A DNA stretch of 64,000 bases from Defluviitaleaceae bacterium (GTDB lineage: Bacteria > Bacillota > Clostridia > Lachnospirales > WRAX01). The notes beneath the pieces were generated by a model. It saw only the letters and a list, made by a program, of their open reading frames with translations, searched no databases and was not told where the DNA came from. Numbering within the stretch: position 1 is the stretch's first letter; the number at the start of each line of letters is the position of its first letter. The position numbers and the translations under genes are program-made. Positions 34,466 through 52,389 of the stretch are shown one piece after another. The stretch spans positions 98,832 through 162,831 of the forward strand of contig WRBK01000001.1 of assembly GCA_009784575.1 (NCBI GenBank), written 5' to 3'.

Positions 34466-34550
34466 AAAAATCACCGCCAAAATGGAAATATAAACCATAG
34501 TATGCTGGCGGGGGAGATGTGTTACAGAATATGTTGATTTTGGATAAATT

Positions 34551-34647
34551 CCAACTTGCTCAAGTTTTTAAGAGACTTACTTGATGAGCAAGTCGCGATA
34601 AACGCCTGTATCATCGGATTTACAGTGACTTGCTCATGGTCAAGTCA
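34551..34647. repeat. Left 97-bp arm of inverted repeat bounding the peptide/regulator cassette
   Basis: Reverse complement matches 36438-36534 with three substitutions, no gaps. Confidence 0.93.
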
Positions 34648-34664
34648 TTTCATCTAAATACATA

Positions 34665-34691
34665 AAAGGGGCAGTCTTTTGACTGCCCCTA
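34665..34691 (-). terminator. Terminator downstream of the cassette regulator
   Basis: Minus-strand AGGGGCAGTC-AAAA-GACTGCCCCT followed by TTTT. Confidence 0.8.
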
Positions 34692-34701
34692 AATGGTTTT
34701 G

Positions 34702-35775
34702 TTAGTCATCCTCTGCTTTGCTGGGTAATTGTATCCTTGCATTGGGTAGCAGCTCTGCTACGGATGCTATGTATTCAAGCTCGCTGTCAGTGAGCCTATC
34801 TGCAACCAATCTTATCTTTTCCATCGATTTATTGCGCATGGTTGATTCGTAGCTGACTGGCTTGTTAGTACCAACCCCTTCATAAAGGGCATCGATAGGA
34901 ACTTTAAGGGCATTTGCGACCTTGTATATATTTTGGGCTGAAATGCCCGACGAACCATTTTCCATTTGATTAATATATGTACTCACATAACCCACAATGG
35001 CCGCTATCTCTGCTGTTGAATACCCAGCCTCTTTCCGTATACGCCTAATGTTTGCACCGATGGCTTTATCAAGCTGCCTTTTGCTTAAATTTACTTCAAC
35101 AAGACCCTCGAACTGCTTGGCATCTGCCTCCATCATCTTATAAACTTCATCTGTTCCATAGCGCGCTAACCCACTAAAACCAGCCCTTTGTGCCTCGGCA
35201 TCGCCGTAAAAGAAGCCATACCTTATGGTGGCTATAGCTCTAGGCATACCAAGTGTGCGTTTACCTCCGCAAATATCTGTAATGGCGCGATAGCAATTGG
35301 AAAATCTTTTTGCCAACTCATCAGATGGGATTAGGTTATCTGAATCGAAGTATTTAGCTCTGAGCAAGCGACTCTGAGTGTTTATATATATGGATAGCTT
35401 TACGCCTTTATATCGTTTTTCATAAGAGTGGTCTTCTAATTTCTTTAGTGCTTTTTCTGCAAGTTCATAGGCTTGTTCGGCTGTATAAGTGCTATTTAAA
35501 ACAGCAGCGATAAGTCTAATGTCATAAAAATGCCATTCATTAATATTGGATAACCTTTCAAATATTGGAGCAACTATTTCACAGCCAGCCTCAAAGTCAT
35601 TATCTTTATTTTCAACAGAATAAGCCTCTAGCAACCTTAAACCATCTTCAATCTGGGCATCAATGCCATTGGTTTTGAGGTAATCTAAAAGCTTAGCCTT
35701 TATCTCTTCATTTTTATCGGCGTTATGATTTCCGCCCATTTCAAAAACTTCGTCAAGTAACTTAAATTTCAGCAA
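34702..35775 (-). CDS. HTH regulator with long helical N-terminal domain and C-terminal XRE HTH
   Basis: C-terminal IGANIRRIRKEAGYSTAEIAAIVGYVSTYINQMENG HTH; N-terminal ~230 aa all-helical, TPR-like in character; TTG start with AAAGGAG RBS. Confidence 0.8.
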   Translation of the reverse strand: MLKFKLLDEVFEMGGNHNADKNEEIKAKLLDYLKTNGIDAQIEDGLRLLEAYSVENKDNDFEAGCEIVAPIFERLSNINEWHFYDIRLIAAVLNSTYTAEQAYELAEKALKKLEDHSYEKRYKGVKLSIYINTQSRLLRAKYFDSDNLIPSDELAKRFSNCYRAITDICGGKRTLGMPRAIATIRYGFFYGDAEAQRAGFSGLARYGTDEVYKMMEADAKQFEGLVEVNLSKRQLDKAIGANIRRIRKEAGYSTAEIAAIVGYVSTYINQMENGSSGISAQNIYKVANALKVPIDALYEGVGTNKPVSYESTMRNKSMEKIRLVADRLTDSELEYIASVAELLPNARIQLPSKAEDD

Positions 35776-35806
35776 AGATTATCTACTCCTTTACCCCTTT
35801 TATATA

Positions 35807-35884
35807 TTAGTCTTCAACTATACCATCACAACAACACCACGTAAACGGCATAAACAATCGCGTAAACAAAGATAAAAACATCAT
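35807..35884 (-). CDS. 25-aa peptide MMFLSLFTRLFMPFTWCCCDGIVED (copy 1)
   Basis: 26 codons with stop; RBS AAGGTGG; 16/25 identical to copy 2. Confidence 0.8.
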   Translation of the reverse strand: MMFLSLFTRLFMPFTWCCCDGIVED

Positions 35885-35922
35885 TATGTCATACCACCTT
35901 CCATAAATAAATAGACATTGGG

Positions 35923-36000
35923 TTAATCTTCAACTGGAGCACCGCAACAACACCATCCAAAAGGCATAAACACCTGTGTAAACAAAGATAAAAACATCAT
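35923..36000 (-). CDS. 25-aa peptide MMFLSLFTQVFMPFGWCCCGAPVED (copy 2)
   Basis: RBS AAGGAGG; same length and frame as copies 1 and 3. Confidence 0.85.
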   Translation of the reverse strand: MMFLSLFTQVFMPFGWCCCGAPVED

Positions 36001-36043
36001 AATATCACACCTCCTTTTTATAATATATCTGACACAAATTTAT

Positions 36044-36115
36044 CGGCGTTATGATTTCCGCCCATTTCAAAGGCTTCATCCAGCAATTTGAATTTCAGCA
36101 AAGAACATCGTCCCC
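36044..36115 (-). pseudogene. Duplicated 5' fragment of the regulator gene (LKFKLLDEAFEMGGNHNADK-FVSDIL*)
   Basis: Near-identical to 35718-35775 plus upstream region, diverging after GATAAA. Confidence 0.85.
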
Positions 36116-36141
36116 TTCATTCTCACCATTTAGATACTGGG

Positions 36142-36219
36142 TCAATCTTCAATTGGTATATCACAACAGCACCATCCAAAAGGCATAAACACCTGCGTAA
36201 ACAAAGATAAAAACATCAT
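36142..36219 (-). CDS. 25-aa peptide MMFLSLFTQVFMPFGWCCCDIPIED (copy 3)
   Basis: RBS AAAGGAGG; first gene after the promoter. Confidence 0.85.
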   Translation of the reverse strand: MMFLSLFTQVFMPFGWCCCDIPIED

Positions 36220-36282
36220 AATATCAAACCTCCTTTCTACAATATGCCTAGCATAAATGCCGCCATTCAGTTAGTTACAAAA

Positions 36283-36310
36283 ATAATATCATATATTGTC
36301 GAAAAGTCAA
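36283..36310 (-). promoter_or_regulatory. Promoter of the peptide/regulator operon
   Basis: Minus strand TTGACT-N16-TATTAT. Confidence 0.65.
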
Positions 36311-36361
36311 TAGAAAAAGTCACACACTTTTCTTAAAAAATGTATGACTTTTTCTATTGAC
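36306..36361. promoter_or_regulatory. Perfect 17-bp inverted repeat overlapping the -35 (candidate operator)
   Basis: GTCAATAGAAAAAGTCA (36306-36322) and TGACTTTTTCTATTGAC (36345-36361). Confidence 0.85.
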
Positions 36362-36437
36362 TCTCTTGGTAAAGTGTGGTACGGCATAGCAGGGGCTAGT
36401 TGGGGTGATATATGCTGTTTATGAGTAAAGTCATTTC

Positions 36438-36534
36438 TGACTTGACCATGAACAAGTCACTATAAATCCGATGATACAGGCGTTTATCGCGACTTGCTCA
36501 TCAAGTAAGTCTCTTAAAAACTTGAACAAGTTGG
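36438..36534. repeat. Right 97-bp arm of inverted repeat bounding the cassette
   Basis: See 34551-34647. Confidence 0.93.
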
Positions 36535-36571
36535 AGCTGATATGAGCATTAATTTACTCATGAATTTCCCC

Positions 36572-36600
36572 TTGACATTTATGTTTTACGAGTGTAGAAT
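36572..36600 (+). promoter_or_regulatory. Promoter with BlaI-like operator in the spacer
   Basis: TTGACA-N17-TAGAAT; TTTACGAGTGTAGA (36585-36598) contains TAC-N4-GTA dyad. Confidence 0.55.
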
Positions 36601-36631
36601 GAAAGTAGATATTATTTATGGAGGGGTGTGC

Positions 36632-37021
36632 GTGGATATGACAATTACAAGACTACCAGATGCCGAGCTGGCTATTATGAAGATTATTTGGCAATGCGGC
36701 GGAAGTGCCACTTCTGTTGATATAATGAGGGAGCTAGAGGGCAAAAAGCAATGGGCTGTCACCACTGTGCTTAATTTTTTGGCGCGGCTGGCAAAAAAAG
36801 GCTTTTTGAGCGTGCGGCGCGAGAATAAAGCAAATATCTACACATCCATCATAGACGAGGAGATTTATTTGCAAGCTGAAAGTGCATCCTTTTTGGAGCG
36901 GCTGCATGATAATTCGCTTACGGGGCTTTTTGCTTCGCTTTATGGTGGTCAAGCCATTTCGCAGGATGACCTAGCCGAACTAAGACGTTTTATTGACGAA
37001 AAGGCGGGTGAGGCGCAATGA
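36632..37021 (+). CDS. BlaI/MecI/CopY family repressor
   Basis: LPDAELAIMKIIWQCGGSATSVDIMRELEGKKQWAVTTVLNFLARLAKKGFL. Confidence 0.93.
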   Translation: MDMTITRLPDAELAIMKIIWQCGGSATSVDIMRELEGKKQWAVTTVLNFLARLAKKGFLSVRRENKANIYTSIIDEEIYLQAESASFLERLHDNSLTGLFASLYGGQAISQDDLAELRRFIDEKAGEAQ

Positions 37022-38832
37022 CCACATTGTATGCCGTGGCAAGCACTGCCCTTGTTACAGCACCTATAATCCTGCTTATACTAGCCGCTACGCCCTTCAT
37101 GAACAAAAAATATGCGGCGGATGGGCGATATTTGCTGTGGCTGGTTATATGCGCGGCATTATTGTTGCCATTTGTGCGCGGTATATTGCCTGCGCCAACC
37201 CCTGCTTTGCAAATACAAATGCCATTTGAGGGCTTGCCCATGCAAGAACTGCAAATAGTACATATATTGCAACCAGTAGCGGCTACATACACAGCAAACA
37301 CGATGGCTTTAGGCAATATGCTATATGCACTTTGGATTTTTGGGATAATTTTGGCTATATGCTATTATGGCTTGCGCCACTTGTGTTTTATGATACCGAT
37401 AAGACTTGGAAGCATAGAAGAAAAAGACCCTGCTACATTAACGCTATATTACGATAAAATGAAGCAATTGCTTGGCAAGAATATAAATATAGAACTTTGG
37501 AGAAGCAATAATGTTAGTTCGCCGATGCTGATAGGGCTATTGCGCCCAAAGATTATCTTGCCTAACAAGCCATACAGCGAAAGAGAGCTTGTGTTAATTT
37601 TTCGGCATGAGCTAACGCATTGTGCAAGGCGGGATATATGGTGCAAACTGCTAATGATGCTTATAAAATGCCTGTATTGGTTTAACCCTGCTGTTCATTT
37701 GATGGCTAAGCAAGCAAATAAGGATATGGAAACCATATGTGACGAGCGCACGATACGGGGCATGGGCATAGATGATAAAAAGCACTATAGCGAGCTGATA
37801 TTGAGTATGGCAACGGTAAAACCCTCTCGCCAAGGGCATCTTGCTACATCGATGAACACAGGCGGCAAAAAGGCGTTAAAGCAACGCTTTGAAGGCATAT
37901 TGAGCAAAGGCAAAAAGCGGGGCGGGTTGCTATTTGGGGGTATTGGCATTACCATTGCGGCATCTGCTATGCTTGTTGGCATAAGCTTTGCGGCAGAGCA
38001 GGTAGATTCTGCTTTGCAAGGACATGGCGAGGGGTTAAGCTCCGCCATTAATCTTTCACATTTTATGCCGCCAAGGGGGTATAGTTGGCAAAATTTGGTG
38101 AATTTGCTGGATGAAAATATAATGCAGATTACATATAATAGCGAAAATATTATATCGCGCGAAATAAACCTGCAACAGCCAATACATACAATTAATGCGG
38201 ATTTTCTGGCGCGGATATATGTGATACCCAGCGAAACAAACTTTGTACGCGTAGAAACGGATGCATTGCTAATGGGGGTGCTGGATGTAAGCTTTAATGG
38301 CGGTGAACTAACAATCGCCAGACCTTCGGGCAATATTTTATCTGATGTACATTTTGGTGAGTTTACTGTAATTCATATAGGAACAACAGGCTATTTTAGT
38401 GATGTGGGCATTAGCATACTTTATGCGGAGCAGGCGCATCAGCCAAGAGACATAAATATACATACGGCGCGCATAAACCCTGTAAATGTGACATTATACG
38501 CGCCAGAGGCAACTTTGGAAGTGGTGGGCATGAACAGCGTTAGCTTTTTTGGAGAAAGTGATGTGCTAACGCTGGATAGCCACTCAAACGATTGGGGGCA
38601 TGTGAATATGAGAAACCTGCCTGTGCGCGAAGCAAACCTTAACCTTGTGGGGCGCACACATACAGTGGTTAATGCAACAGAGCAGCTAAATGTGACATCC
38701 CAAGCGAGGATTGCAGATGGCTCTGAACAATTTATCGCGAATTGGGTGGACTTTATAGGCGAACCACTAATAACGGAGCAAGTATTATCTGGCAGACTAA
38801 ATATGCAAAATGCGGGGTGTAATGTAGAATGA
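37018..38832 (+). CDS. BlaR1/MecR1-type M56 metallopeptidase with beta-helix-like extracellular domain
   Basis: TM helices, LIFRHELTHCARRDIWCKLL zinc-peptidase motif; C-terminus resembles DUF4097/DUF2807-type repeats. Confidence 0.88.
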   Translation: MTTLYAVASTALVTAPIILLILAATPFMNKKYAADGRYLLWLVICAALLLPFVRGILPAPTPALQIQMPFEGLPMQELQIVHILQPVAATYTANTMALGNMLYALWIFGIILAICYYGLRHLCFMIPIRLGSIEEKDPATLTLYYDKMKQLLGKNINIELWRSNNVSSPMLIGLLRPKIILPNKPYSERELVLIFRHELTHCARRDIWCKLLMMLIKCLYWFNPAVHLMAKQANKDMETICDERTIRGMGIDDKKHYSELILSMATVKPSRQGHLATSMNTGGKKALKQRFEGILSKGKKRGGLLFGGIGITIAASAMLVGISFAAEQVDSALQGHGEGLSSAINLSHFMPPRGYSWQNLVNLLDENIMQITYNSENIISREINLQQPIHTINADFLARIYVIPSETNFVRVETDALLMGVLDVSFNGGELTIARPSGNILSDVHFGEFTVIHIGTTGYFSDVGISILYAEQAHQPRDINIHTARINPVNVTLYAPEATLEVVGMNSVSFFGESDVLTLDSHSNDWGHVNMRNLPVREANLNLVGRTHTVVNATEQLNVTSQARIADGSEQFIANWVDFIGEPLITEQVLSGRLNMQNAGCNVE

Positions 38833-41800
38833 AAAAAATTAGGAATATATGCTTAAAATCCATGCTACGTCAGCGGTTGCGGACATTGCTGCTTGTATTG
38901 CTGATAGCTGCTGCATCTTTTGCTTTTGTTTTGCGCACGGTGGAATACATCGTGGTTCATGACCAAATAATGGAAATGAGCGAGACATACCAAACCATAG
39001 GCTTTATTGAGCCTGTGGAGGGCGGCAACCATACCAATATTGCTCATGTGGCAGATATACTATACACGAGCGAGCATGTAATGTTTGAAGATAGGCGCAT
39101 GACATTTGAAGGCGTGCTTCAAGGTATGAATAATATTGATTTTATGGGTATGCAGGCAGGCTTGGATGCTGCCGACCAATTGAGCATCACTGATGTGTAT
39201 TTTTACGCAACTATTCTTGAATTATGGGATAGTCCATGGGCTGGACAGGAGTGGCCATGGGTGCATATTGATACTATATATGCGGGCTATGAAGAGCATG
39301 CCAATCTTAATCTAAGAGTATGGGTATTGCTTGATACCCATGAGCTTGGGCGTGAGAGCTTTGATATGCTTGAAGTAGGTGAGAGGTTTTTCTTTAGAGC
39401 GCGGTACTATATGCAATGGGGTACTTTTGGTCCTCTTACGCCACAGATAGGCAGAGGTGATGTGCTAACATTACTTCCAGTTAATGAAGATGCAGGTATA
39501 ACCATTATCCCTGTAGCCGAAGGAGAGAGTATAGACCTTGATGCACCAGAATTTGCGCATATAACAGAATATATGGAGTCCGCAAGCAGAGACCACAGAA
39601 CTACACAGGTAACAGGTACACATGACCTACAGGCTTCCCCTGCCTTTGCTGGCAACCATGCACAATTAAGAATGATACATGGACGGGCAATAGATGGCGA
39701 TGATAATGCAGAGCAAAACCATGTGGCAAATATAAGCACGCGCTTTGCGAACTTGCGCAACATAGAAATAGGGGACACAATAGAGATTGCTATATATCCC
39801 GAGCAATTTGTGGATGGCATAGCCCATGGCTTTGGGAGACCTCTTGTGCGCTCTGTGCCTGAAGGCGAGCCATATATGCTTTCGGTAGAGGTTGTTGGTA
39901 TTTTTGCGTACTTTCCGCCCGGTGGGATGTTTAGCACCATTATCCCTACGGGTATATATGTTCCTGCATCTATTTTACCAGAGGGCATGACATTATCGCC
40001 GCCGCATAGGGATATTGCTTGGGCTGATTATGATAATTATTTGGCGGCGGGGTGGTACAATTTCGCGCTAGCAGATGCGGCGCATGAACAAGAGTTTTTG
40101 GCATGGTTTTGGGAGCATCCAGAGCTATTTGACTACAATGTGGTTATTATTGGAGATGGCGGGGATGCGCTTAATTTCCAAGCATCTGCACAGCCTGTTT
40201 TGTTGGCAATACTATTTAATGCAGTGATATTCTGGGCGGTGCTTATCCTTGTTATGGCTCTTGTGGCATTTATCTTTGTGCGGCAACGTCAAAGAGATAT
40301 TGCGATATATCGTGCGCTGGGTGCAAGCAAGCTTGTGGTTATGTGGCATATGTTAAAGACCGCATTGATATTTGTTGTACCTTCTGCTGTGGCGGGCAGT
40401 ATTGCGGGCTGGTTCTTGGCTTTACGTGCCGCCGCTACTGTGCTAGAGCCTTTTGCGGTATTTATGCAAGAGCCAGCGGGCTTGGTGCATCCGCTTTTGC
40501 GCCAGCCGCCGCCACAAGTGATAGAATTTGATTTGGAGCTAGGCGCATATTGGCTCATCGGGCTTGCGGGATTTGTTGTTGTGCTTCTGATGGTTATGGT
40601 TTTGTGTGGCACATTGCGTATACTTGGTGCATCTGTGCTTGCGCTCTTGCAAGGCTATAGCTCAAGGGGCGGCACAAAAAAGGTCACTGTAGCGGCAACG
40701 GATGGTGAGCAAGAAGCCTTGGCGATATCTGGGCTTGCCTCGCAAGAGCTTGACATACCAACATCACCGCCAGTGGTATTTTATGGAGCTAGGCGCGATG
40801 CTGCAATACGTTTTATAAATAGGCATATCTTGCGCTCGCCGATAAAGTCCATGCTTGGGCTTGTTATTGCCCTTGCTTTTGTAGCAGCCCTTGGTTGGCT
40901 ACAAGAATCAATGGTGCGTAGCGATAATGAGGTTGATAGGCTTTATGCCACAACTATAGTGCATGGGCAAATGGGTACAAACCTGCCTGGCGCGGAAATA
41001 TCAGCATCTGTAACAAACTTTTTTGCCCCTGGCTTTCTTATTAATGATGTTATTCGCCCGCAGATGGTAGGGGTGGTGCAAGAGCTGGCAGGGCAAACCG
41101 ATGTAGTCTTTTGGGGAGAGGTAGAAGGAGCAGAGCATGTTTATATCACCAATCTGTATTTAGAATCTGGGTTTATACGTTCATTTTTTGTGCATTCGCC
41201 TGATGGTGGCGGCTTGCAAGAAAATTGGCAAGAGATAACGGGCATAGACCAAGATGAAGGACTATTTGCCAATTTCAGCTTATTTGATAGACTGTTTGCT
41301 TTCAATGATATTGATAGATTTGTAAGCGAAAACACCGACCATAGAGGTGTTGTGGAGTTTGAGTTTGGGGCAGGCTTTGAGATAGCGGATTTTACTGGCT
41401 TTGAGGTGGGTGGGCGCATACCAGTAATAATTTCGCAAGAATCCCTAGAGAGTAATGGTCTGAGCGTGGGTGACTATATAAATATAGGCTATTTCACGCT
41501 AACCATTTCGAGCTATAGCTATGTGCCAGCGCAGATAATAGGCGTACATAATGGACATATACTGCGGGATGATATGGAATATGCATCCTTGATTCCGCTG
41601 TCGGCTTTGGAAGATATGCTAGGCAATCTGATGGGATATATCACGTTGGCATTTGAGGTAGACACGATACATAACAGGGAGATTGTGCATATTAGGGACA
41701 CATTGCAAGAAGTGGCGAATACCCAAAGAGGACATCTAAACCTAACAATGTCGCTATTTTTGCAAGATGAAGAGCTTAGGAATGTAGCAAATGCCCTAGA

Positions 41801-42161
41801 GCAAACAATGCTCTTGTTGGAACTTTTGTATCCTGTTGCTATAATAATGTCTATTGTGATAGCGATGGGGCTTTCTATGCTATTAATGTTACAAACAGCA
41901 AGAAATGCTGCCATAATGCGCGTATTGGGCGCACCAAAGCAGAAAACGCGGACTATGCTTGCTGTAGAGATGCTTTTGGTGTGCTTGGTAGGGCTCGCTG
42001 CCTCGTCATTGGTATTCATTGTTATGGGCTGGGGTTTTGGTATACAGTCAATAGCGAGTATTGCGGGAATGTATTTTGGCGGCGCGCTTATAGGGGCTGC
42101 CGCAGGAGCATATATGGTAACAAAACGACCACCGCTAGAATTGTTGCAAGTGAGAGAATAG
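38829..42161 (+). CDS. FtsX-like ABC transporter permease
   Basis: 1110 aa; FtsX TM blocks around FVRQRQRDIAIYRALGASKLVVMWHMLKTALIF and ARNAAIMRVLGAPKQKTRTMLAVEMLL. Confidence 0.92.
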   Translation: MKKIRNICLKSMLRQRLRTLLLVLLIAAASFAFVLRTVEYIVVHDQIMEMSETYQTIGFIEPVEGGNHTNIAHVADILYTSEHVMFEDRRMTFEGVLQGMNNIDFMGMQAGLDAADQLSITDVYFYATILELWDSPWAGQEWPWVHIDTIYAGYEEHANLNLRVWVLLDTHELGRESFDMLEVGERFFFRARYYMQWGTFGPLTPQIGRGDVLTLLPVNEDAGITIIPVAEGESIDLDAPEFAHITEYMESASRDHRTTQVTGTHDLQASPAFAGNHAQLRMIHGRAIDGDDNAEQNHVANISTRFANLRNIEIGDTIEIAIYPEQFVDGIAHGFGRPLVRSVPEGEPYMLSVEVVGIFAYFPPGGMFSTIIPTGIYVPASILPEGMTLSPPHRDIAWADYDNYLAAGWYNFALADAAHEQEFLAWFWEHPELFDYNVVIIGDGGDALNFQASAQPVLLAILFNAVIFWAVLILVMALVAFIFVRQRQRDIAIYRALGASKLVVMWHMLKTALIFVVPSAVAGSIAGWFLALRAAATVLEPFAVFMQEPAGLVHPLLRQPPPQVIEFDLELGAYWLIGLAGFVVVLLMVMVLCGTLRILGASVLALLQGYSSRGGTKKVTVAATDGEQEALAISGLASQELDIPTSPPVVFYGARRDAAIRFINRHILRSPIKSMLGLVIALAFVAALGWLQESMVRSDNEVDRLYATTIVHGQMGTNLPGAEISASVTNFFAPGFLINDVIRPQMVGVVQELAGQTDVVFWGEVEGAEHVYITNLYLESGFIRSFFVHSPDGGGLQENWQEITGIDQDEGLFANFSLFDRLFAFNDIDRFVSENTDHRGVVEFEFGAGFEIADFTGFEVGGRIPVIISQESLESNGLSVGDYINIGYFTLTISSYSYVPAQIIGVHNGHILRDDMEYASLIPLSALEDMLGNLMGYITLAFEVDTIHNREIVHIRDTLQEVANTQRGHLNLTMSLFLQDEELRNVANALEQTMLLLELLYPVAIIMSIVIAMGLSMLLMLQTARNAAIMRVLGAPKQKTRTMLAVEMLLVCLVGLAASSLVFIVMGWGFGIQSIASIAGMYFGGALIGAAAGAYMVTKRPPLELLQVRE

Positions 42162-42174
42162 GGGGATTTGGAAT

Positions 42175-42831
42175 ATGCTAAGCATAGAAAATATTGGTTA
42201 TCGCTATAAAAATGGCGACCGTGACGTGTTAAAGAATGTTTGTGCAGACTTTAAGGCGGGGCAGTTTCATTCGATAGTTGGGCCATCTGGTAGTGGCAAA
42301 ACAACGCTGCTGTCCATTATGGCGGGGCTTGACAAGCCATCTAGCGGCAAAGTTATGATACATGGCAAGGATCTAAGCAAGATGAATCTGGATAAATACC
42401 GCCGCGAAGATATTTCGATGATATTCCAAGCGTTCCATCTGTTTCCATTGTTGACGGCGATAGAAAACACTTGCTATCCAATGGAAGCCAATGGCGCATT
42501 GCGCAAGCATGCCCTAGAGCGGGCAAAAACACTGTTGGAGAGCGTGGGCATAGGTGAAGAAAAACATAAGCGTTATCCTGCCAACCTTTCTGGTGGCGAG
42601 CAACAGCGCGTGGCAATAGCCCGCTCGCTTTCTACGGGTGCTAAAGTTATCTTGGCGGATGAACCTACGGGCAATTTGGACGTGGCAAATGGTGATGCCA
42701 TAATCGGTATTCTGAAACGTCTGGCTCATGAACAAGAATACTGCGTGATTGTAGTTACTCATAATATGGAGATAGCGGAAGCATCTGATAAGGTATTTAG
42801 AATGTCTGATGGTGTTTTAAGCGTGGGGTAA
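42175..42831 (+). CDS. ABC transporter ATP-binding protein (LolD/MacB-like)
   Basis: GPSGSGKTTLL Walker A, LSGGEQQRVAIARSL signature, VILADEPTGNLD Walker B. Confidence 0.96.
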   Translation: MLSIENIGYRYKNGDRDVLKNVCADFKAGQFHSIVGPSGSGKTTLLSIMAGLDKPSSGKVMIHGKDLSKMNLDKYRREDISMIFQAFHLFPLLTAIENTCYPMEANGALRKHALERAKTLLESVGIGEEKHKRYPANLSGGEQQRVAIARSLSTGAKVILADEPTGNLDVANGDAIIGILKRLAHEQEYCVIVVTHNMEIAEASDKVFRMSDGVLSVG

Positions 42832-51480: not shown

Positions 51481-52389
51481 TTAATGGCGGCTTCGTCTGT
51501 GTCTATTGAGCATATCTTCTGCTTTTTGGAATGCTTCGCGGCTGATTATAGGGGCATGATGGTCTTTTATGATTATAAATTCCTCTTCGCCTTGGTTTTG
51601 TTTTTTGTCATGGGTTAGATAGTCAGGTGTGAAAGTCTTTTTCTGAACTAGGTCGCCGCAGTATTTTTCATTGCGTAGTATTTTGTGGATGGTGGTGTGC
51701 GACCATTCTTTGCGACCTGTTATTGTTGTGTATCTTTCTTGTGAAAGGGTGCGGGCTATGGCGTGGCAACCCATGCCTTTGTTTATGTACATGTCGAAGA
51801 TAAGGCGAATTATGCTTGCGCCCTCTTCGTTTATGTGCATCTTGCCATTGCGCACATCATAGCCTAGCATACTGCGCCCAAAGACTACACCTTTTTCCAT
51901 CTGCCGCTTTTGCCCCCATTTTACGCGCTCGGAGGTTTTGCGGCTTTCTTCTTGGGCTATGGATGCCATTATGGTTAGGCGTAGCTCTGCATCTGCATCT
52001 AAGGTGTTTATATTGTCATTTAAAAAAATAACGCCTATGCCATGTTTTTTTAATTCGCGGGTATATTGTATACTATCTAGCGTATTGCGGGCAAATCTTG
52101 ATATTTCCTTAGTGAGGATGAGGTCAAAATCCCCTGATACGGCGGCTGATATCATGCGGTTAAAATCCTTGCGTTTTTTGGTGCTGGTGCCAGAAATGCC
52201 TTTATCCGCAAAGATTTCATGTAGTTGCCACTTCGGTATTTTTTGTATGTATTGCTCAAAATATGCCCGCTGGGATTCTAAGGAGTTTGCTTGGTCGAGA
52301 CTATCTGTAGAAACGCGGCAATATGCAGCTACGCGCTTGTATTGCGCAGCTTTTGCACGCATCTTGTTCATTTTCTCATATTTTTCCAT
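51481..52389 (-). CDS. Serine recombinase (resolvase plus recombinase domains; no C-terminal zinc ribbon/coiled coil)
   Basis: AAYCRVSTDSLDQANSLESQ catalytic Ser region; ISRFARN; ends at AEDMLNRHRRSRH*. Confidence 0.93.
   Translation of the reverse strand: MEKYEKMNKMRAKAAQYKRVAAYCRVSTDSLDQANSLESQRAYFEQYIQKIPKWQLHEIFADKGISGTSTKKRKDFNRMISAAVSGDFDLILTKEISRFARNTLDSIQYTRELKKHGIGVIFLNDNINTLDADAELRLTIMASIAQEESRKTSERVKWGQKRQMEKGVVFGRSMLGYDVRNGKMHINEEGASIIRLIFDMYINKGMGCHAIARTLSQERYTTITGRKEWSHTTIHKILRNEKYCGDLVQKKTFTPDYLTHDKKQNQGEEEFIIIKDHHAPIISREAFQKAEDMLNRHRRSRH

What the first reader, a model, noticed from the sequence alone, without database searches (positions are those of the whole stretch)
34551..36534. 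97-bp, 3-mismatch inverted repeats bracket the peptide/regulator cassette with no transposase inside
Arms 34551-34647 and 36438-36534 are gapless reverse complements (94/97). Each arm contains three small dyads sharing ACTTG/CAAGT stems (AACTTGCTCAAGTT, ACTTGATGAGCAAGT, GACTTGCTCATGGTCAAGTC). The boundaries fall between murA and blaI. This could be a non-autonomous mobile cassette, an invertible segment, or a pair of identical regulatory repeats. If invertible, the outer promoters (murA side versus blaI side) would swap.
Basis: partly seen in the sequence, partly recalled or inferred. Interest (0 to 1): 0.7.

Follow-up and report, generated by a model that had tools for sequence, protein, structure and literature searches.

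The report
Paired palindromic mini-repeats around pheromone genes
The two 97-bp inverted repeats are two copies of a short, dispersed, MITE-like palindromic repeat found only in this genome among all the collections searched; here they bracket a self-contained peptide-pheromone/receptor cassette, so the locus looks like a small transposase-less composite cassette rather than a flip switch.

Summary
In detail: 34550-34647 and 36438-36535 are near-perfect inverted repeats, far beyond chance (94/97 against at most 51/97 in shuffles). Each arm is itself a complete copy of a roughly 97-117 bp palindromic repeat. The host genome holds six copies at four places: this inverted pair, a second inverted pair around a phage-type AAA/DnaB-like ATPase gene, and two solo copies (after dnaJ; between lepB and ppiB). 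None was found in 294 other genomes of the order, and none of the phage, plasmid and viral hits was a real relative. At lepB-ppiB a congener and a family member lack the element, so it inserts. It behaves like a MITE; the pairs resemble MITE-bounded composite structures (TIME-COMP, IMU). No target duplication and no partner transposase were found, so movement of the bracketed segment as a unit is inferred. Inversion with promoter swapping is not supported: the cassette's promoter, three pheromone genes, receptor and terminator lie inside the arms, and blaI's promoter lies outside. The arms are not part of the circuit: three paralogous cassettes lack them. The cargo is perhaps the more interesting part: an Rgg/PlcR-like receptor with swapped domain order and three tandem Cys-rich propeptide genes.

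The parts
34550..34647 (+). Left arm: 97-bp palindromic element (long A-end outward on the murA side, short B-end inward)
36438..36535 (-). Right arm: inverted copy of the same element (A-end outward on the blaI side), 94/97 identical
34667..34690 (-). Rho-independent-type terminator of the receptor gene, inside the arms
   Evidence: 10-bp stem, 7 GC pairs, T-rich tail on the - strand
34702..35775 (-). Receptor/regulator gene (357 aa, TTG start): Rgg/PlcR-like helical peptide-binding domain at residues 1-227, HTH_3 at 243-296
35807..35884 (-). Propeptide gene 3: MMFLSLFTRLFMPFTWCCCDGIVED
35923..36000 (-). Propeptide gene 2: MMFLSLFTQVFMPFGWCCCGAPVED, AGGAGG ribosome site
36039..36117 (-). Duplicated fragment of the receptor's 5' end between propeptide genes 1 and 2 (trace of a tandem duplication)
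   Evidence: D2, 85% to 35713-35791
36142..36219 (-). Propeptide gene 1: MMFLSLFTQVFMPFGWCCCDIPIED, AGGAGG ribosome site
36283..36310 (-). Promoter of the peptide-receptor operon (TTGACT-16-TATTAT, TG before -10)
36305..36362 (.). 27-bp inverted repeat overlapping the -35: operator-like; same layout upstream of the C25 paralog
   Evidence: (I2)
36572..36600 (+). blaI promoter (TTGACA-17-TAGAAT), outside the right arm

Best explanation
Each arm is a separate copy of a short non-autonomous palindromic insertion element of about 97 bp (full symmetrical form about 117 bp), MITE-like, presumably moved in trans by a transposase not present in the assembly. Two copies sit in inverted orientation on either side of a self-contained pheromone/receptor operon, giving a composite-transposon-like structure whose outer ends could be used to move the whole segment of about 2 kb. 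Shown: dispersed copies, palindromic ends, restriction to this genome among those searched, an empty site for one solo copy, a second inverted pair in the genome. Inferred: the transposase in trans, and past or present movement of the bracketed segment as one unit (I put that step alone at about 0.35; independent insertions plus homogenisation of the arms is the main alternative).
For: Six copies at four places in a 1.84-Mb draft genome (BLAST; the covariance model gives the same six and nothing else of note). The solo copy at C1:4669-4788 is palindromic over its whole length, and each 97-bp copy matches the family on both strands. No copy in 294 other genomes of the order including two congeners, none in plasmid or phage records. 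lepB-ppiB gap: 139 bp with the element in this genome, against about 10 bp in congener G001 and about 16 bp in family member G007. Two of the four places are inverted pairs with the same (A) ends outward; under random placement two pairs within 2 kb have P about 2e-4. The second pair brackets a lone AAA_25/DnaB_C-like ATPase gene with phage-derived relatives. MITE-bounded segments moved without an internal transposase are documented (PMC4133298, PMC13367494).
Against: No convincing target-site duplication around solos or pairs (by eye). No partner transposase identified: no Y1 transposase in the genome; DDE families were not surveyed, and the draft is 81% complete. The C3 arms are only about 82% alike, no closer than copies at different loci, so that pair may be two independent insertions. 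Neither cassette is present twice; the receptor's paralogs (46-52% identical) have no arms. The murA neighbourhood is rearranged in relatives, so no empty murA-blaI site could be examined.
Confidence: 0.7

Rival explanations
1. Two independent insertions of the same MITE-like element on either side of a resident pheromone/receptor operon, later homogenised by gene conversion between the arms; the segment has never moved as a unit. (This shares the element reading with the best explanation and differs only in the unit-movement step.)
For: The elements insert singly elsewhere. The receptor family is resident across the family of bacteria without arms. C3 arms are as different from each other as from other copies. 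No outer target duplication.
Against: Two of four places being close inverted pairs with A-ends outward is unlikely by chance (P about 2e-4 for the pairing); the window arms at 97% would need a separate homogenising event.
Confidence: 0.45
2. Invertible DNA segment: recombination between the arms flips the cassette as a phase-variation switch.
For: 97-bp arms at 94/97 identity are long enough for RecA-mediated inversion (general knowledge). A resolvase-type serine recombinase ORF lies about 15 kb away (51481-52389).
Against: Promoter, genes and terminator all lie inside the arms, and blaI's promoter outside, so flipping would not change which promoter drives which gene. No recombinase gene inside. 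Solo copies of the arm exist elsewhere, so the arm is not a dedicated inversion site.
Confidence: 0.07
3. The arms are regulatory repeats (protein-binding sites or RNA hairpins) that belong to the pheromone circuit.
For: Strong predicted hairpins; several dyads that could bind a dimer.
Against: The same element flanks unrelated genes (dnaJ, lepB/ppiB, nitroreductase/AAA ATPase). Three paralogous circuits have no arms, and at least one keeps the operator-like inverted repeat and promoter. Orientation relative to transcription is inconsistent (sense at C3 left, antisense at C3 right and C35). No Rfam family matched above its gathering score.
Confidence: 0.08

Closest known systems
[quoted passage not shown] PMC4133298, PMC13367494)
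   Same: Two short gene-free elements with inverted-repeat ends, in direct or inverted orientation, bracket 1-11 kb without a transposase; a transposase acts in trans; direct repeats are often missing around database copies.
   Different: TIMEs are about 244-262 bp with Tn3-type ends of about 38-40 bp, found mainly in Proteobacteria and often on plasmids. Here the elements are 97-117 bp with AACTTG/GACTTG ends, on long contigs of a draft genome; no mobilisation shown.
IMU (integron mobilization unit; listed in PMC13367494)
   Same: Inverted MITE pair around genes with no transposase; [quoted passage not shown]
   Different: Element sequence and cargo (blaGES-5 integron) differ; here mobility is not tested.
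REP/BIME palindromic repeats with RAYT (Y1) transposases
   Same: Short intergenic palindromes, singly and in inverted pairs.
   Different: No Y1 transposase family match in this genome; only six copies.
RRNPPA peptide-pheromone systems (Rgg, PlcR), for the cargo
   Same: Adjacent small propeptide gene(s) and a helical-repeat receptor with HTH; sensor domain matches Rgg/PlcR structures, Z 13-17.
   Different: Domain order is swapped (sensor first, HTH second) and propeptides end in CCC-x3-4-ED; no pheromone activity shown.

Membership tests
MITE | Short (about 50-500 bp), no coding capacity | tested here: met
   97-117 bp, intergenic at all six places
MITE | Terminal inverted repeats | tested here: met
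   about 43-bp terminal inverted repeats in the solo copy C1:4669-4788; a short B-end in the 97-bp form
MITE | Several dispersed copies with insertion polymorphism | tested here: met
   six copies at four places; lepB-ppiB junction without it in G001 and G007
MITE | Target-site duplication | tested here: inconclusive
   no convincing duplication seen; copies are 76-84% alike between loci and so may be old; in PMC4133298 only four of the database TIMEs had direct repeats
MITE | Related autonomous element with the same ends | tested here: inconclusive
   no transposase at any of the six copies; genome 81% complete; none found in relatives
TIME/TIME-COMP | Tn3-type terminal repeats of about 38-40 bp | tested here: not met
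   ends are AACTTG.../GACTTG..., unlike Tn3-family ends, which begin GGGG (my knowledge)
REP/BIME (RAYT-mobilised) | Y1 (RAYT/IS200-IS605) transposase in the genome | tested here: not met
   PF01797: no match in the 81%-complete genome, while it rings in control genomes
Invertible DNA switch | A promoter or gene fragment whose connection changes on inversion | tested here: not met
   complete transcription unit inside the arms, outer blaI promoter outside (consensus-based)
Invertible DNA switch | Both orientations present in a population | not testable with these tools
   one draft assembly, no reads
RRNPPA (cargo) | Helical-repeat peptide-binding domain plus adjacent propeptide gene | tested here: met
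   model 1-227 aligns to Rgg144 74-287, Z 17.3, rmsd 3.4 over 207 residues; small propeptide ORFs with ribosome sites
RRNPPA (cargo) | N-terminal HTH followed by C-terminal repeat domain | tested here: not met
   HTH_3 at 243-296 of 357, after the helical domain

The most novel reading that the evidence does not exclude
The arms delimit a transposase-less mobile cassette that carries a complete peptide-pheromone communication system of an undescribed domain-swapped Rgg/PlcR-like class (three tandem Cys-rich propeptides plus receptor), moved by a new family of palindromic mini-elements.
Probability: 0.25. Interest if true: 0.65.

Novelty: new member of a known kind. Interest (0 to 1): 0.42.

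Why it matters
MITE-bounded segments without a transposase are known mainly from resistance plasmids of Proteobacteria. An example from an uncultured lineage, with a pheromone system as cargo, would show the same gene-capture route acting on communication genes. The cargo itself points to peptide-receptor systems with inverted domain order, an architecture that a published large-scale detector used as a reason to discard clusters (PMC10075063).

Tried and rejected
Rfam: no family above its gathering score. Genome contigs pattern scan: 7 hits in unrelated phyla, and viral contigs: 24 hits to half-patterns; re-alignment with whole elements gave only matches of 18-28 nt around the pattern, treated as chance. 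Search for an empty murA-blaI site: the gene order around murA is rearranged in all relatives read, and no relative of the M56 peptidase next to blaI was found in either congener. Element tree: six short rows, no supported fork. Receptor homologs in viral contigs: none. Base composition: the segment between the arms (38% GC) is lower than murA (48%) but within the window's range, so no evidence of foreign origin. No inverted repeats near the serine recombinase at 51.5-52.4 kb.

Full report
Observation. The inverted repeat is real and slightly longer than stated: 34550-34647 and 36438-36535, 97% complementary, 1790 bp apart. The best 97-nt inverted match in resampled sequence is 49-51 of 97, against 94 here. 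The three dyads are there, but they are parts of one palindrome: the inner part of each arm folds as a 19-nt stem (I5), and the whole arm folds at about -32 to -35 kcal/mol.

What the arm is. A search of the host genome (1.84 Mb, 41 contigs, 81% complete) finds six copies: this pair, a second inverted pair on contig 3 (30365-30462 and 31661-31758), a solo copy beside dnaJ on contig 1 (4669-4788) and a solo copy between lepB and ppiB on contig 35 (773-870). A covariance model built from the six finds no seventh of note. The dnaJ copy is the symmetrical form, about 117 bp with 43-bp terminal repeats. The other five lack about 21 nt from one end, which gives a long A-end and a short B-end; in the lepB-ppiB copy the centre is turned round relative to the ends. 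So each arm is a complete element and not merely the end of a larger one.

It is an insertion. No copy exists in 57 relatives by BLAST, or in 294 other genomes of the order by covariance model (stricter filters), including two congeners. Plasmid and phage records gave nothing. In congener G001 and family member G007, lepB and ppiB are adjacent with gaps of about 10 and 16 bp; in this genome the gap is 139 bp and holds the element. No target duplication is convincing at any of the sites. No Y1 transposase is in the genome; other transposase families were not surveyed.

Pairs. Two of the four places are inverted pairs 1.2-1.8 kb apart, both with A-ends outward. With six random positions, two pairs within 2 kb have P about 2e-4. 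The contig-3 pair brackets one gene, an AAA_25/DnaB_C-like ATPase with relatives among phage-derived records and PHROG helicase families, between a nitroreductase and a Cu_amine_oxidN1/DUF1266 protein. Its arms are only about 82% alike. The window pair is 97% alike and brackets the pheromone cassette. I read this as MITE-bounded composite structures, as in TIME-COMP and IMU, but the literature systems have mobilisation data and this one does not. For the unit-movement step alone, independent insertion plus gene conversion is at least as likely.

Not a switch, not a regulator. The operon inside has its own promoter (36283-36310, -), an operator-like 27-bp inverted repeat (36305-36362) and a terminator (34667-34690); blaI's promoter is outside the right arm. 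Inversion would carry the whole unit round without exchanging promoters. Three paralogous loci in the same genome (contigs 25, 18, 5) have the peptide and receptor without arms; contig 25 also keeps the operator-like repeat; two of the three receptors carry in-frame stops.

Cargo. Three tandem 25-aa propeptide genes (MMFLSLFT[QR][VL]FMPF[GT]WCCC...ED) precede a 357-aa receptor. A structure prediction (mean pLDDT 83.6) places an Rgg/PlcR-like helical domain at residues 1-227 (Rgg144, Z 17.3, rmsd 3.4 over 207 residues) and an HTH at 233-303, the reverse of the Rgg/PlcR order. The top Z is above the level at which helical repeats match by common arrangement, and the top rows are nearly all Rgg/PlcR receptors, but sequence identity is 9-13%. 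Most homologs read in the family of bacteria also have a small peptide ORF upstream. RRNPP_detector discarded clusters with an N-terminal TPR region.

Verdict. Observation confirmed; interpretation partly supported. The arms are ordinary in kind (a MITE-like family confined, in the data searched, to one genome); the cassette reading is plausible and unproven; the inversion reading is unlikely.

Noticed in passing
window 34702-36362 (-); paralogs L034, L035, L036; homologs L039-L047: Peptide-pheromone-like system with a domain-swapped Rgg/PlcR-like receptor (sensor N-terminal, HTH C-terminal) and Cys-rich propeptides; four loci in this genome (two receptors with in-frame stops), relatives across the family with diverse peptides often ending in CG/CGG.
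   Followed up: partly
window 35713-35791 and 36039-36117: The start of the receptor gene is duplicated between propeptide genes 1 and 2 (85% identical), a trace of the tandem duplication that made extra propeptide genes.
   Followed up: partly
L035:5536-5633; L034:6209-6260; L009:4322-4367: A second intergenic repeat family (GTCATTGCGAGGGCTACAGGTTGCTCC...GCAATCCATTA); a truncated copy abuts the left arm of the contig-3 pair, and copies lie upstream of two pheromone paralogs.
   Followed up: partly
window 51481-52389 (-): Serine recombinase ORF (Resolvase + Recombinase domains, 302 aa), shorter than typical large serine recombinases; no inverted repeats nearby. Possible remnant of an integrated element.
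   Followed up: partly
L009:4557-5642: Lone phage/plasmid-replication-type AAA_25 ATPase bracketed by the second arm pair; a paralog lies on contig 12 (48710-49684).
   Followed up: partly
window 36542-42831: BlaI-type repressor, M56 (BlaR1-like) peptidase with a DUF2807 domain, FtsX-type permease and ABC ATPase in a row: a possible cell-envelope stress operon.
   Followed up: no
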